Below, piece by piece: positions 14,819-26,652 of a stretch of 34,585 nt of DNA. The notes below the pieces were generated by a model, which saw only the letters and a program-made list of their open reading frames with translations, was not told the DNA's origin and ran no database searches. This DNA is from Pseudomonadota bacterium (lineage in GTDB: Bacteria; Oederibacteriota; Muellerivitia; Muellerivitales; Muellerivitaceae), in the NCBI GenBank assembly GCA_021324075.1, contig JAJPJW010000026.1, forward strand, positions 1-34,585, given 5' to 3'. The position numbers and the translations under genes are program-made. Each line of letters opens with the position of its first letter. The stretch's first letter is position 1.

Positions 14819-14850
14819 AAAAAAGCCCGGGGGGAAACCCCCCCGGGCTT
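14819..14850 (-). terminator. Intrinsic terminator after the acidic-protein gene
   Basis: On the minus strand a GC-only stem (GCCCGGGGGG pairing with CCCCCCGGGC over a short T/G loop) is followed directly by six Ts. It ends 14 bp after the acidic-protein stop and closes that minus-strand unit. Confidence 0.92.
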
Positions 14851-14863
14851 CATCGAATTGGCG

Positions 14864-15283
14864 CTATTCCTCGAGACGCTCCAAAGCCTCGTCCCAGGCG
14901 TCGTCCAAATTGTCCACTTCCCCTTCGTTGATCACCTCGGCGAGGAGCTTTTTGAGTTTCGGCGCCAGGGCCTCATCCTGGTCGTTCTCCTTGAGGACTT
15001 CCCGGACATCTTCCATGGTCAGGTTTTCCAGGAGTTCTTCCGACTCGCTCTGAAAGAGACGGCGGCGTTCTATATCCTCCACCGATTCCTTCGCCGATTC
15101 CTCGTCATCGTCATCGTCCACGTCTTCGTCGTCTTCTTCCTCTTCCTCGGCTTGGTCCAGGTCAATGGTGTCGTCGTCTTCGTCGTCCTCTTCATCATCC
15201 TCTTCTTCGTCGGCGTCCTCGTCGTCCATTTCCTCGTCATCGACCATTTCGTCGTCGTCCGCATCACCGCGCTTGCGAGCCAA
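14864..15283 (-). CDS. Highly acidic low-complexity protein, 139 aa
   Basis: I do not recognise a family. TTG 15283 is the start, because AGGAGG lies five bases before it. After a short basic start (ARKRGD) residues 8-65 are almost only Asp and Glu, with runs such as EEEDDEEDDEDDD. Residues 70-139 look folded and helical (EDIERRRLFQSESEELLENLTMEDVREVLKE in outline), ending DAWDEALERLEE. The acidic half is encoded by GAC/GAT/GAA/GAG repeats prone to length change. The gene follows the tandem Mrr-like membrane protein by 132 bp and ends at a strong terminator. A DNA mimic, histone-like chaperone or protein-interaction role is possible but unproven. Confidence 0.75.
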   Translation of the reverse strand: MARKRGDADDDEMVDDEEMDDEDADEEEDDEEDDEDDDTIDLDQAEEEEEDDEDVDDDDDEESAKESVEDIERRRLFQSESEELLENLTMEDVREVLKENDQDEALAPKLKKLLAEVINEGEVDNLDDAWDEALERLEE

Positions 15284-15415: not shown

Positions 15416-17236
15416 TTAAAGTTGCCGCCGCAGGTTTTCCCACTGGTTGCGGTCCACCAGTTCCACGTTGGAAAAGCGGGCCAGGGCGCGGGCTTCCATC
15501 GCAAAATCGGCGGTCACCATCAACAATCCCCGGTGGCAAAATTCAGCCTTCATGATATGGCCCATCTCGCTCACCAGTTCGGCCGGCACCCTTTCCTCCG
15601 GCGGATACTGCCTGGCCATGACGGCGTACTTGCCGCCGGTAATGGGATGGGGGAACTCGGCCACCGCCACCACCGCCCCGCCCGGGATACGGCGGGTCTT
15701 TTCCACGCGGAAACCCAAGCACTTCAAAAAGAGGTCCGTTTCCTTTTCAAAATCCATGAGCGACATGCGGCTTAAGTCGGCGACCACGCCCTTCTCATCC
15801 ACAACCCGGAAGGTCCACCGGCCGTCATAGGCCGGACCTTCCATCAGTTCGGTTAGTTTCAAGCCGTCCACCAGGTCCACAGCCATGGTCCGGGAAATGT
15901 TCCTGGCTTCCTCGGTGAACCGCCCCGTCACGATATAGATGCCGCGTTTGCAGCCCTCCTCACGGGTCACTTCATCCAATTCCCGGATCAAATCCGCGTG
16001 GACAGGTGCGGTTTCTGGGTATTGCCGGGCCAGCACCAGGAAACTCCCCCCGACGACCGGATGTTGGAAGTCCACTTGGATCTGCAGGGTCCCGCCGGGC
16101 ACCTTCTTGATTTTCCTCACGTCAAAATTCATCTTCGCCAGGACCCCCACGGCCAGGTCCTGGAACTGGGCCAGGGGCAGGGAGCTCAGTTCCTTCCCCC
16201 GAAGGGTCTCCTGGATCACCTGGGGTTCTTCCACGGCCTTGGGCTTTTCCCAGCCTTCGTCCACCTTTTCCTTGGCGGTTTCATACCGGATGTTGATCTT
16301 GGGGGCATTTTCCTTGATGCGCTCGATGACCCTGGCGCCCTTGCTTTCCTCTTGGGGTATGGGCTGGGTCTCCATGCCGTCGTTGTAACGAAGGTCGAAG
16401 GAAGTCAGGGCCTTAAAGGGCGGCAGCTGGTTTTTCTGGGTGTGCTCAAAGACTTCCCTCTGGGCTTTGACGCTCAAAACCGTGCCGTCGTAGTATTTGG
16501 CCTTGCCGCTGATGAAGCTCATCATGGCGTCGGCGATCACATGGGGGATGTTCTCCGAAAGGAAAAAGGCCCTTTCGAGGACATGGAGCGTGTCGGTGAA
16601 AAGGGCCTCCCGGAACGTCCGGTAGTTGCTGTCCAGCTCCTTCATGTACTTTTGTTTCATCATGTCGGCGGCGTAGTCCTCCTTGGAATCCTTGGGGGCC
16701 CTGCCGATCAGCGCGCTCTCCCCGGTCGAAAAACGCCGGACTTGGAACCGGATCCGGGGGACCATATCCACCACATGGACGGACTTTACCTCGATCTCGG
16801 GATATTTTTCCGAGAGGTAGAACCGGAAAATTTCCTCAAAATTTCCCATGGCGCCCTTGCGCAGGTGGTTACGTTTTTCCTCTATCTTGTGCCGGTCCAT
16901 CCTTTGGCGGTGCTGCGCTTCCGCTTTCTGGGCGCTGGTCCGCCGCATGAATTGGAAGATAAGGGCCAGGAGCATAAGGGTGCCGAAGATGGCGATTCCC
17001 GTCGCCTCAGCCGGGTTTTGTTGGCAGTAATCCCAAAGGCTTTGGAAGGAAGTATGGATCAGCCCATAAATAAAGCTGTTGAAGAGGATGACCAGCAGGA
17101 AAATCACGAGGAAGGCCGCGGCCACACCGCCCGTATTGGCCTCGTCATCCGTGTGACCCTGCTGGAGGAGGTGGGCCTTCACTTGCTTCGCGCCGGGGAT
17201 TCGGAGGAAACGTTCGACCCATAAGGGTGAGAGCAT
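15416..17236 (-). CDS. Membrane-anchored protein with two tandem degenerate Mrr-like (restriction-endonuclease fold) repeats
   Basis: This 606-residue protein has two N-terminal membrane spans (about 39-60 and 77-97) and a basic helix (about 100-130). A middle region (about 130-330) contains no motif I recognise. Two ungapped 114-residue repeats lie at about 355-468 and 493-606. By hand alignment they share about 40 identical positions, including PGG, HP, GG, ARQYP, the C-x-RG motif, VT, EAR and LVD. The pattern of a core strand, RQYP, then RG-x-x-x-VT and LVD, resembles Mrr_cat domains (QCKRY, G-I-x-VTT, LIDG). However, the catalytic Asp of GG-x-D is not in place and the Q-x-K lysine is Arg. 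ATG 17236 is used; an in-frame TTG lies 12 bases upstream. The role is unknown. Confidence 0.8.
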   Translation of the reverse strand: MLSPLWVERFLRIPGAKQVKAHLLQQGHTDDEANTGGVAAAFLVIFLLVILFNSFIYGLIHTSFQSLWDYCQQNPAEATGIAIFGTLMLLALIFQFMRRTSAQKAEAQHRQRMDRHKIEEKRNHLRKGAMGNFEEIFRFYLSEKYPEIEVKSVHVVDMVPRIRFQVRRFSTGESALIGRAPKDSKEDYAADMMKQKYMKELDSNYRTFREALFTDTLHVLERAFFLSENIPHVIADAMMSFISGKAKYYDGTVLSVKAQREVFEHTQKNQLPPFKALTSFDLRYNDGMETQPIPQEESKGARVIERIKENAPKINIRYETAKEKVDEGWEKPKAVEEPQVIQETLRGKELSSLPLAQFQDLAVGVLAKMNFDVRKIKKVPGGTLQIQVDFQHPVVGGSFLVLARQYPETAPVHADLIRELDEVTREEGCKRGIYIVTGRFTEEARNISRTMAVDLVDGLKLTELMEGPAYDGRWTFRVVDEKGVVADLSRMSLMDFEKETDLFLKCLGFRVEKTRRIPGGAVVAVAEFPHPITGGKYAVMARQYPPEERVPAELVSEMGHIMKAEFCHRGLLMVTADFAMEARALARFSNVELVDRNQWENLRRQL

Positions 17237-25430: not shown

Positions 25431-26639
25431 TCATTCGCAAAGCTTTAACTTTTTCAATTTGGCGGCCACGTCGTCTTCCGGCCGTCCCTCGCAAAGGGAT
25501 TTAGCCGTCTCCTTGGCTTCCGTCCTTCGACCTTGTTGCAGCAGAATCTCGGCCAGGTCCAATTGCAGGTCCGTCTTGAAACTTTTCCCATAAAAAAGGT
25601 CGAGGATCTCCCCCTCGCCCAGGGCCTTCCGCAATGCCCTTTCGCCCCCGGCCAGGTTGCCGGCCTGCCAATAGGCCACGGCCCTGCAAAATAGGACGTG
25701 GGGATCGTTGGGATATTGCTCCACCAGGGCTTTTGACTGGGCGACCGCCTTGGCAAAGGGCTTCGGCAAGCTGTCGGGAGGCGCCATTTGGGCCGCCAAA
25801 TCGCGGTTATGGCCGTAGGCGTAGGCCGGCACGGCGGCCGACCAAAGGAAAATGAAAATTCCGGAAAAGGCGGCCAACTTCCCTATCGACTCCCAAAGGG
25901 GCAGGGGTTCCTGCTTGTTCCAGGTTCCGGACAACAACCCCGCCAATACAACCCCGCAGACGGCCCCGCCCAAATGGGCGCTCAGGTCTACGTGCTTTCC
26001 GGCGGAGAAAACCTGCGGGAAAAGGGACATGACGAAACCCGGTCCGATTCCACGCAGGATACGGCTTCGGTATATCCCGCTCGGCAATTTAAAAGCCACC
26101 ACCAAGGCCGCCCCCATCAGTCCCATGATGGCCCCCGAGGCCCCCACTGATACCGAGTGCGGATCCCCCAAAAAACCGGAAGCCAGGCTTCCGCAAAAGC
26201 CGCACAGGAAATAAAGGCTGAAGAACCAGGCCCCGCCCACCATCCGCTCCAAGACCCTCCCGGTCAGGTAGAGGGCGATCATGTTGTAGAGCAGGTGCGT
26301 ATCGTCCGCATGCAGTAGGGTCGAGCTGAAAAGACGGGTCCAACCGCCTGGCAAGGCCAGGAGCTCGCGGTTCAAGGCGCCGAAAAAGATCAGGGAACGC
26401 AAACTGGGGGCAAAGTCATGTCCGAGTTTTCCGAAAGCAAAGACGGCCTCGGCCACAAAGATTCCCGTCATACCGGTAATCAGGGTCCAGGTGCAGTAAA
26501 GGGGCGTGGGTTTTGCCGCCGGCGGGGGATTCAGGGGCGCCTCGATCGGGATGGCCGAAGCAGGGGAGGCGGCTGTTTCGACAGGGGCCAGGTCCTCCCG
26601 GCGGGACAACGCCGATAGCGGAAACCACATCTTGTTCAT
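25431..26639 (-). CDS. Rhomboid-family intramembrane serine protease with C-terminal TPR-like tail
   Basis: This 402-residue protein has about six to seven spans. The rhomboid dyad is present: serine in GASGAIMG and histidine in VDLSAHLGG. The FSSTLLHADDTHLLYNM segment and the GRVLER loop are typical of rhomboids, which cut membrane proteins within the bilayer. The first 45 residues are proline/alanine-rich and cytoplasmic. After the last span (near residue 285) comes about 110 residues of helical repeats (SKALVEQYPNDPHVLFCRAVAYWQAGN in outline), TPR-like, possibly for substrate or partner binding. ATG 26639 is chosen over TTG 26645. It lies 13 bp after a putative small gene. Confidence 0.88.
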   Translation of the reverse strand: MNKMWFPLSALSRREDLAPVETAASPASAIPIEAPLNPPPAAKPTPLYCTWTLITGMTGIFVAEAVFAFGKLGHDFAPSLRSLIFFGALNRELLALPGGWTRLFSSTLLHADDTHLLYNMIALYLTGRVLERMVGGAWFFSLYFLCGFCGSLASGFLGDPHSVSVGASGAIMGLMGAALVVAFKLPSGIYRSRILRGIGPGFVMSLFPQVFSAGKHVDLSAHLGGAVCGVVLAGLLSGTWNKQEPLPLWESIGKLAAFSGIFIFLWSAAVPAYAYGHNRDLAAQMAPPDSLPKPFAKAVAQSKALVEQYPNDPHVLFCRAVAYWQAGNLAGGERALRKALGEGEILDLFYGKSFKTDLQLDLAEILLQQGRRTEAKETAKSLCEGRPEDDVAAKLKKLKLCE

Positions 26640-26652
26640 AGCCAAGGTCCGA

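What the first reader, a model, noticed from the sequence alone, without database searches (positions are those of the whole stretch)
15416..17236. Membrane protein with two tandem, apparently dead Mrr-like repeats
Residues ~355-468 and ~493-606 align without gaps over 114 positions with about 40 identities by eye. Both keep the fold markers of Mrr_cat (GG, RQYP, C-x-RG, VT, LVD), but the catalytic Asp is missing and the Q-x-K lysine is Arg. Duplicated, inactive nuclease folds joined to two membrane spans suggest a sensor or scaffold that binds DNA or RNA ends, or a defence-type adaptor. It is the strongest candidate here for an undescribed system together with the acidic gene after it.
Basis: partly seen in the sequence, partly recalled or inferred. 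Interest (0 to 1): 0.72.

Follow-up and report, generated by a model that had tools for sequence, protein, structure and literature searches.

The report
Membrane-tethered tandem dead Mrr nuclease domains
In one family of uncultured FCPU426 bacteria, a membrane protein carries two side-by-side copies of a DNA-cutting fold that have lost their catalytic residues yet are tightly conserved, which suggests the old nuclease fold is now used to bind something at the inner face of the membrane rather than to cut it.

Summary
A 606-aa gene (window 15416-17236, minus strand) encodes two predicted membrane helices, a basic stalk, a roughly 210-residue middle region, and two tandem Mrr-type PD-(D/E)XK domains. 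The repeats share 40 of 114 residues without gaps (shuffle maximum 19), match Pfam Mrr_cat twice (whole protein E 5e-26), and are modelled together confidently (pLDDT 86, pTM 0.82). Foldseek finds MspJI, AspBHI, AF1548 and Rpb5. The catalytic Asp and Glu/Gln positions are replaced in all six orthologues (Q/L in repeat 1, V/M in repeat 2). Repeats evolve under strong purifying selection.

The system or defence reading is not supported. The gene lies in a conserved housekeeping block in six of eight sampled genomes of one FCPU426 family, with no PADLOC-recognised neighbour. A 99%-complete relative has the block and the acidic gene but lacks this gene.

A wider pattern appears. In other phyla, short one-helix proteins, TPR proteins and longer membrane proteins carry single dead Mrr domains of the same type. 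I found no description of them in the papers searched. Best reading: a membrane-anchored pseudonuclease acting as a binding scaffold on the cytoplasmic face; ligand unknown. New variant of a known kind (inactive PD-(D/E)XK domains).

The parts
15416..17236 (-). CDS, 606 aa: two-helix membrane protein with tandem inactive Mrr-type domains
   Evidence: orthologues
17057..17125 (-). TM helix 1, about residues 38-60
   Evidence: hydropathy peak 38-56, span present in all six orthologues; helix in model
16943..17011 (-). TM helix 2, about residues 76-98
   Evidence: hydropathy peak 79-97 here, 76-94 or 79-97 in orthologues; helix in model
16847..16942 (-). basic helical stalk, residues 99-130 (net charge +6); with few K/R in the helix-helix loop this suggests the C-terminal part is cytoplasmic
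   Evidence: topology inferred from the positive-inside rule
16217..16846 (-). middle region, residues 131-340, no Pfam family; likely related to the domain that precedes active Mrr in soluble coiled-coil nucleases
15839..16183 (-). Mrr-like repeat 1, residues 352-466, catalytically dead (Q385, L402, R404)
15770..15838 (-). linker, residues 467-489, 74-91% identical to the window sequence among orthologues
15419..15769 (-). Mrr-like repeat 2, residues 490-606, catalytically dead (V523, M540, R542)
14864..15283 (-). acidic 139-aa gene; neighbour, not a dependent partner (kept in G006 without the Mrr gene)
14822..14851 (-). terminator-like hairpin just after the acidic gene; none seen between the two genes, so co-transcription is possible
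   Evidence: similar hairpin in L015, none in L014

Best explanation
The protein is a pseudonuclease held at the inner membrane. Shown by computation: two hydrophobic spans, two tandem PD-(D/E)XK (Mrr-type) domains packed together in one model, loss of the catalytic Asp and Glu/Gln in every orthologue, and strong purifying selection on the dead domains. Inferred: the positive-inside pattern puts the domains in the cytoplasm; they arose by tandem duplication, most simply of an already inactivated domain; they now bind a partner (protein, nucleic acid or small ligand) without cutting it, so the protein works as a scaffold or sensor for a chromosomal housekeeping role. Of these ligands I rank a protein or small-molecule partner slightly above nucleic acid, on the published precedent of the YqgP cytosolic domain, but nothing here decides it.
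For: Mrr_cat twice. Model of residues 345-606 with pLDDT 85.7, pTM 0.82; Foldseek to MspJI and AspBHI (prob 1.00, E about 1e-4) and to AF1548 and Rpb5. Asp and Glu/Gln lost in 6/6 orthologues. pN/pS 0.065 and 0.082 for repeats 1 and 2 between G001 and G002, 0.08-0.19 against the window; repeats more conserved than the TM part. Repeats 1 and 2 are sisters in the tree (98/95). Syntenic in six genomes between mazG and the acidic gene. No other Mrr_cat protein found in the window's own genome. The YqgP N-terminal cytosolic domain has a restriction-endonuclease-like core, binds Mn/Zn and facilitates MgtE cleavage (PMC7231995); it appears in the Foldseek list at E 0.016, prob 0.77.
Against: No ligand or partner is identified. 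The match to the YqgP domain is weak. Absence in G006 means it is not essential to the family. Net charge of the repeats (about -2 and +1) does not separate nucleic-acid from protein binding, because active Mrr domains span the same range. The middle region is poorly modelled (pLDDT mostly under 50).
Confidence: 0.6

Rival explanations
1. A membrane tether for nucleic acid: the paired dead nuclease domains keep DNA or RNA binding (perhaps ends or structured sites) and hold chromosome or transcripts at the membrane.
For: Parent fold binds DNA; two copies in one chain could mimic a nuclease dimer. Rpb5, an inactive relative among the Foldseek hits, is an RNA polymerase subunit. RmuC is a precedent for a TM helix plus coiled coil plus a PD-(D/E)XK domain (PMC1189080).
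Against: No positive net charge on repeat 1; the positions of the metal-site residues are hydrophobic or amide. No DNA-processing operon partner.
Confidence: 0.25
2. A sensor or adaptor in an anti-phage system, like the inactive restriction-endonuclease domains in NACHT, BREX-related and Orc/CDC6-linked systems.
For: PF22722 NA-iREase1 matches above its cut-off (35.4 against 27 bits). PADLOC PDC-S02 matches at E 3.6e-7. Inactive REases are proposed as sensors or decoys in defence (PMC12839542; also found with an Orc/CDC6 ATPase in PMC10853773).
Against: No NTPase partner and no PADLOC match among the neighbours scanned, fixed syntenic position in six genomes, no match in phages and only the Mrr region of a plasmid restriction endonuclease. 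NA-iREase1 also matches fully active Mrr proteins, and PDC-S02 matches only over the Mrr part.
Confidence: 0.08
3. A still active nuclease using relocated catalytic residues.
For: PD-(D/E)XK enzymes are known to move catalytic residues (general knowledge); repeat 1 has an invariant Asp389 near the site, repeat 2 keeps Lys in four of six orthologues.
Against: Asp, Glu/Gln and Lys positions are all changed in repeat 1; repeat 2 lacks both the Asp and the Glu/Gln in 6/6. Glu527 in repeat 2 is Gln in one orthologue.
Confidence: 0.05

Closest known systems
Mrr_cat family (PF04471), including MspJI and AspBHI type modification-dependent nucleases
   Same: Fold, HMM score over the cut-off for both copies, GG and RG motifs
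   Different: No catalytic Asp, Glu/Gln or (repeat 1) Lys; two tandem copies; membrane helices
NA-iREase1 (PF22722), inactive restriction-endonuclease domain of NACHT systems
   Same: Inactive domain of the same fold; score above cut-off
   Different: No NACHT or other NTPase; membrane-anchored, tandem, chromosomal housekeeping context
YqgP N-terminal cytosolic domain (6r0j; PMC7231995)
   Same: Restriction-endonuclease-like core tethered to the inner membrane and facing the cytoplasm, with a non-nuclease role
   Different: Single copy fused to a rhomboid protease; only weak structural match (E 0.016)
Rpb5 N-terminal domain
   Same: Inactive PD-(D/E)XK-like fold found by Foldseek
   Different: Soluble RNA polymerase subunit; no membrane helix, no tandem
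Short one-helix proteins with a dead Mrr domain (L065, L067, L068, L072, L073, L078, L080, L091, L108) and TM-TPR-dead Mrr proteins (L069, L070)
   Same: Membrane helix plus inactive Mrr domain sharing the P-x-x-GG loop in most; fall with the window repeats in a weakly supported clade (83/83)
   Different: One copy, no middle region, different gene neighbourhoods; most one-helix forms keep an acidic residue at the Asp position but lack the Lys and the Glu/Gln

Membership tests
Mrr_cat / PD-(D/E)XK fold | HMM match over the curated cut-off | tested here: met
   two copies over 21 bits
Mrr_cat / PD-(D/E)XK fold | alpha-beta-beta-beta-alpha-beta core | tested here: met
   model secondary structure and Foldseek hits
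Mrr-type nuclease (enzyme) | catalytic D...(E/Q)xK set | tested here: not met
   Q385/L402/R404 and V523/M540/R542; six orthologues
NA-iREase1 / NACHT-associated inactive REase | HMM match over cut-off | tested here: inconclusive
   35.4 against 27 bits, but active Mrr proteins also pass
NA-iREase1 / NACHT-associated inactive REase | fusion or linkage to a NACHT or STAND NTPase | tested here: not met
   no such domain in the protein or in the neighbours scanned
Anti-phage defence system | defence-gene neighbourhood or mobile distribution | tested here: not met
Anti-phage defence system | protection against phage | not testable with these tools
   needs plaque assays
Two-gene system with the acidic protein | the two genes occur only together | tested here: not met
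   G006 has the acidic gene and not the Mrr gene; where the Mrr gene is present it is next to the acidic gene, 6/6
YqgP-like membrane sensor domain | inactive REase-like domain on the cytoplasmic side of a membrane protein | tested here: inconclusive
   topology by positive-inside rule; weak Foldseek match
YqgP-like membrane sensor domain | fused to a rhomboid core | tested here: not met
   no rhomboid domain in the protein

The most novel reading that the evidence does not exclude
Membrane-tethered, catalytically dead Mrr domains form a real cross-phylum protein class (single-helix, TPR-linked, middle-domain-linked and tandem forms) with a shared non-nuclease function on the cytoplasmic face of the membrane, of which this tandem protein is the most elaborate form.
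Probability: 0.3. Interest if true: 0.65.

Novelty: new variant of a known kind. Interest (0 to 1): 0.42.

Why it matters
Proteins like this score as restriction endonucleases in automatic annotation, although the catalytic site is gone and selection keeps the fold. A conserved membrane pseudonuclease of this kind would show a nuclease fold reused for binding or sensing, and would give a sequence class (membrane helix plus dead Mrr) that can be surveyed and tested in culturable bacteria.

Tried and rejected
Defence reading: PADLOC on 15 window neighbours (plus the protein itself) found no neighbour match, and no phage record matched. Pairing with the acidic gene: broken by G006. Decaying gene: rejected by pN/pS of 0.06-0.2 in the repeats. 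PDB sequence search gave nothing with the single protein and only a weak MspJI hit with the profile. The first genome-contig scan with the single protein found no relative. Middle region alone against the active coiled-coil family by profile was not significant (1.3% probability); the link rests on L066 as a bridge. Gain of the gene against loss in G006 could not be decided: RecA, MazG and PP2A trees do not resolve the root. The MazG tree is void because one sequence was read in the wrong frame; one MazG row still contained a stop. Acetyl-CoA carboxylase and APOBEC3G hits in Foldseek have rmsd of about 15-20 A or more and were discarded.

Full report
The gene. The ORF lies on the minus strand, window 15416-17236, starting at ATG 17236 and giving 606 aa.

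Fold. Pfam Mrr_cat matches twice. AlphaFold2 on the whole protein modelled the repeats well and the middle region badly. On residues 345-606 it gave pLDDT 85.7 and pTM 0.82, so the two domains have a defined mutual arrangement in the best model; only one of the five models reached that mean confidence, the others ranging from 53 to 78. Foldseek against the PDB lists MspJI and AspBHI (probability 1.00), AF1548 and Rpb5; the viral library lists phage restriction endonucleases and Rpb5 relatives.

Dead site. Aligned with active relatives, the catalytic Asp is Gln385 in repeat 1 and Val523 in repeat 2, the Glu/Gln is Leu402 and Met540, and the Lys is Arg404 and Arg542. In six orthologues the first two positions never revert; the repeat-2 Lys position is Lys in four. 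The repeats are under purifying selection: pN/pS is 0.065 and 0.082 between G001 and G002, and 0.08-0.19 against the window sequence, where synonymous sites are close to saturated. They are more conserved than the membrane part.

Anchoring. Hydropathy gives two spans in all six orthologues, few basic residues in the loop between them, and a stalk with net charge +6 after the second. By the positive-inside rule the repeats face the cytoplasm. This is inference.

Distribution and neighbourhood. Named matches place the relatives in candidate division FCPU426. Full-length orthologues occur in six of eight sampled genomes of the window's family and nowhere else among 45 phylum genomes. In all six the gene lies divergently from mazG and before the acidic gene, the two small membrane-protein genes, a ketoacyl synthase and, where the contig reaches that far, bioF and bioD, with a PP2A-like phosphatase and AsmA on the other side. 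The window around it holds cinA, a radical SAM methylthiotransferase-like gene, bioA, recA and a penicillin-binding protein. No neighbour scanned matches PADLOC; the protein itself matches PDC-S02 over its Mrr part only. In G006 (99% complete) the block is intact except that this gene and the MFS gene are missing, and mazG and the acidic gene are about 140 bases apart. The acidic gene is found in seven genomes, the Mrr gene in six. So the acidic gene does not depend on it. No terminator was seen between the two genes in the window and one follows the acidic gene, so they may still share a transcript.

Wider relatives. A profile of the repeats was run on 289 genomes and hit 26. Reading the proteins gives four kinds: short one-helix proteins with a single dead domain; TM-TPR proteins with a dead domain; L066/L100 with a signal-like helix, a TM helix, a middle region and a dead domain; and active Mrr proteins, mostly soluble (two with two TM helices, L076 and L079, are active). 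Every membrane form except those two is dead and every soluble form aligned is active, but the profile was built from dead domains and so favours them. In the tree the two repeats are sisters (98/95) and join the TPR forms (94/84) and the one-helix forms in a clade of weak support (83/83); L066/L100 fall elsewhere, so inactivation may have happened more than once. L066 bridges the middle region of the window protein (95% probability over middle plus Mrr) to that of active coiled-coil nucleases (E 3e-21); the direct comparison of middle regions alone was not significant.

Comparison with the literature. Inactive REase domains are described in BREX-related and Orc/CDC6-linked systems, in the BREX-related case proposed as sensors or decoys, and the Pfam entry PF22722 names a NACHT-associated one. 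RmuC and COG4741 are PD-(D/E)XK-type proteins with a membrane helix. The YqgP cytosolic domain is a membrane-tethered restriction-endonuclease-like fold with a regulatory role. None of the papers found describes the tandem protein or the one-helix dead-Mrr proteins. The library holds open-licence papers only, so this absence is weak evidence.

Verdict. The likely mechanism is non-catalytic binding at the cytoplasmic face of the membrane, with the ligand unknown. The defence reading and the two-gene-system reading are not supported.

Noticed in passing
L017 6923-7438, L097 6052-6561, L092 6732-7406, L091 6352-6885, L096 2131-2655: Five of the short one-helix dead-Mrr genes lie within about 4.5 kb of cytochrome b, cytochrome c or ccmF genes. 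L017 and L097 are close relatives, so there are at most four independent cases, and no background rate was computed.
   Followed up: partly
L069 478-1848, L070 1492-2856: Membrane helix plus TPR repeats plus dead Mrr domain; lies after two other TPR-like genes in both genomes.
   Followed up: partly
L089 8528-12127: Ribonucleotide reductase large subunit with a LAGLIDADG intein.
   Followed up: no
window 14864-15283: Acidic 139-aa protein with a conserved C-terminal 73 residues, found only in seven genomes of this FCPU426 family among 45 searched; no Pfam family above cut-off.
   Followed up: partly
window 25431-26645: Rhomboid protease with C-terminal TPR-like repeats about 8 kb from the gene; YqgP, the closest functional precedent, is also a rhomboid with TPR repeats. 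Probably coincidence.
   Followed up: no
L055 6511-7905: G006 lacks the MFS gene as well as the dead-Mrr gene from an otherwise intact block.
   Followed up: partly
L076 808-1875, L079 1216-2349: Two-TM proteins with an apparently active Mrr domain, one with a C-terminal zinc-finger-like end.
   Followed up: no
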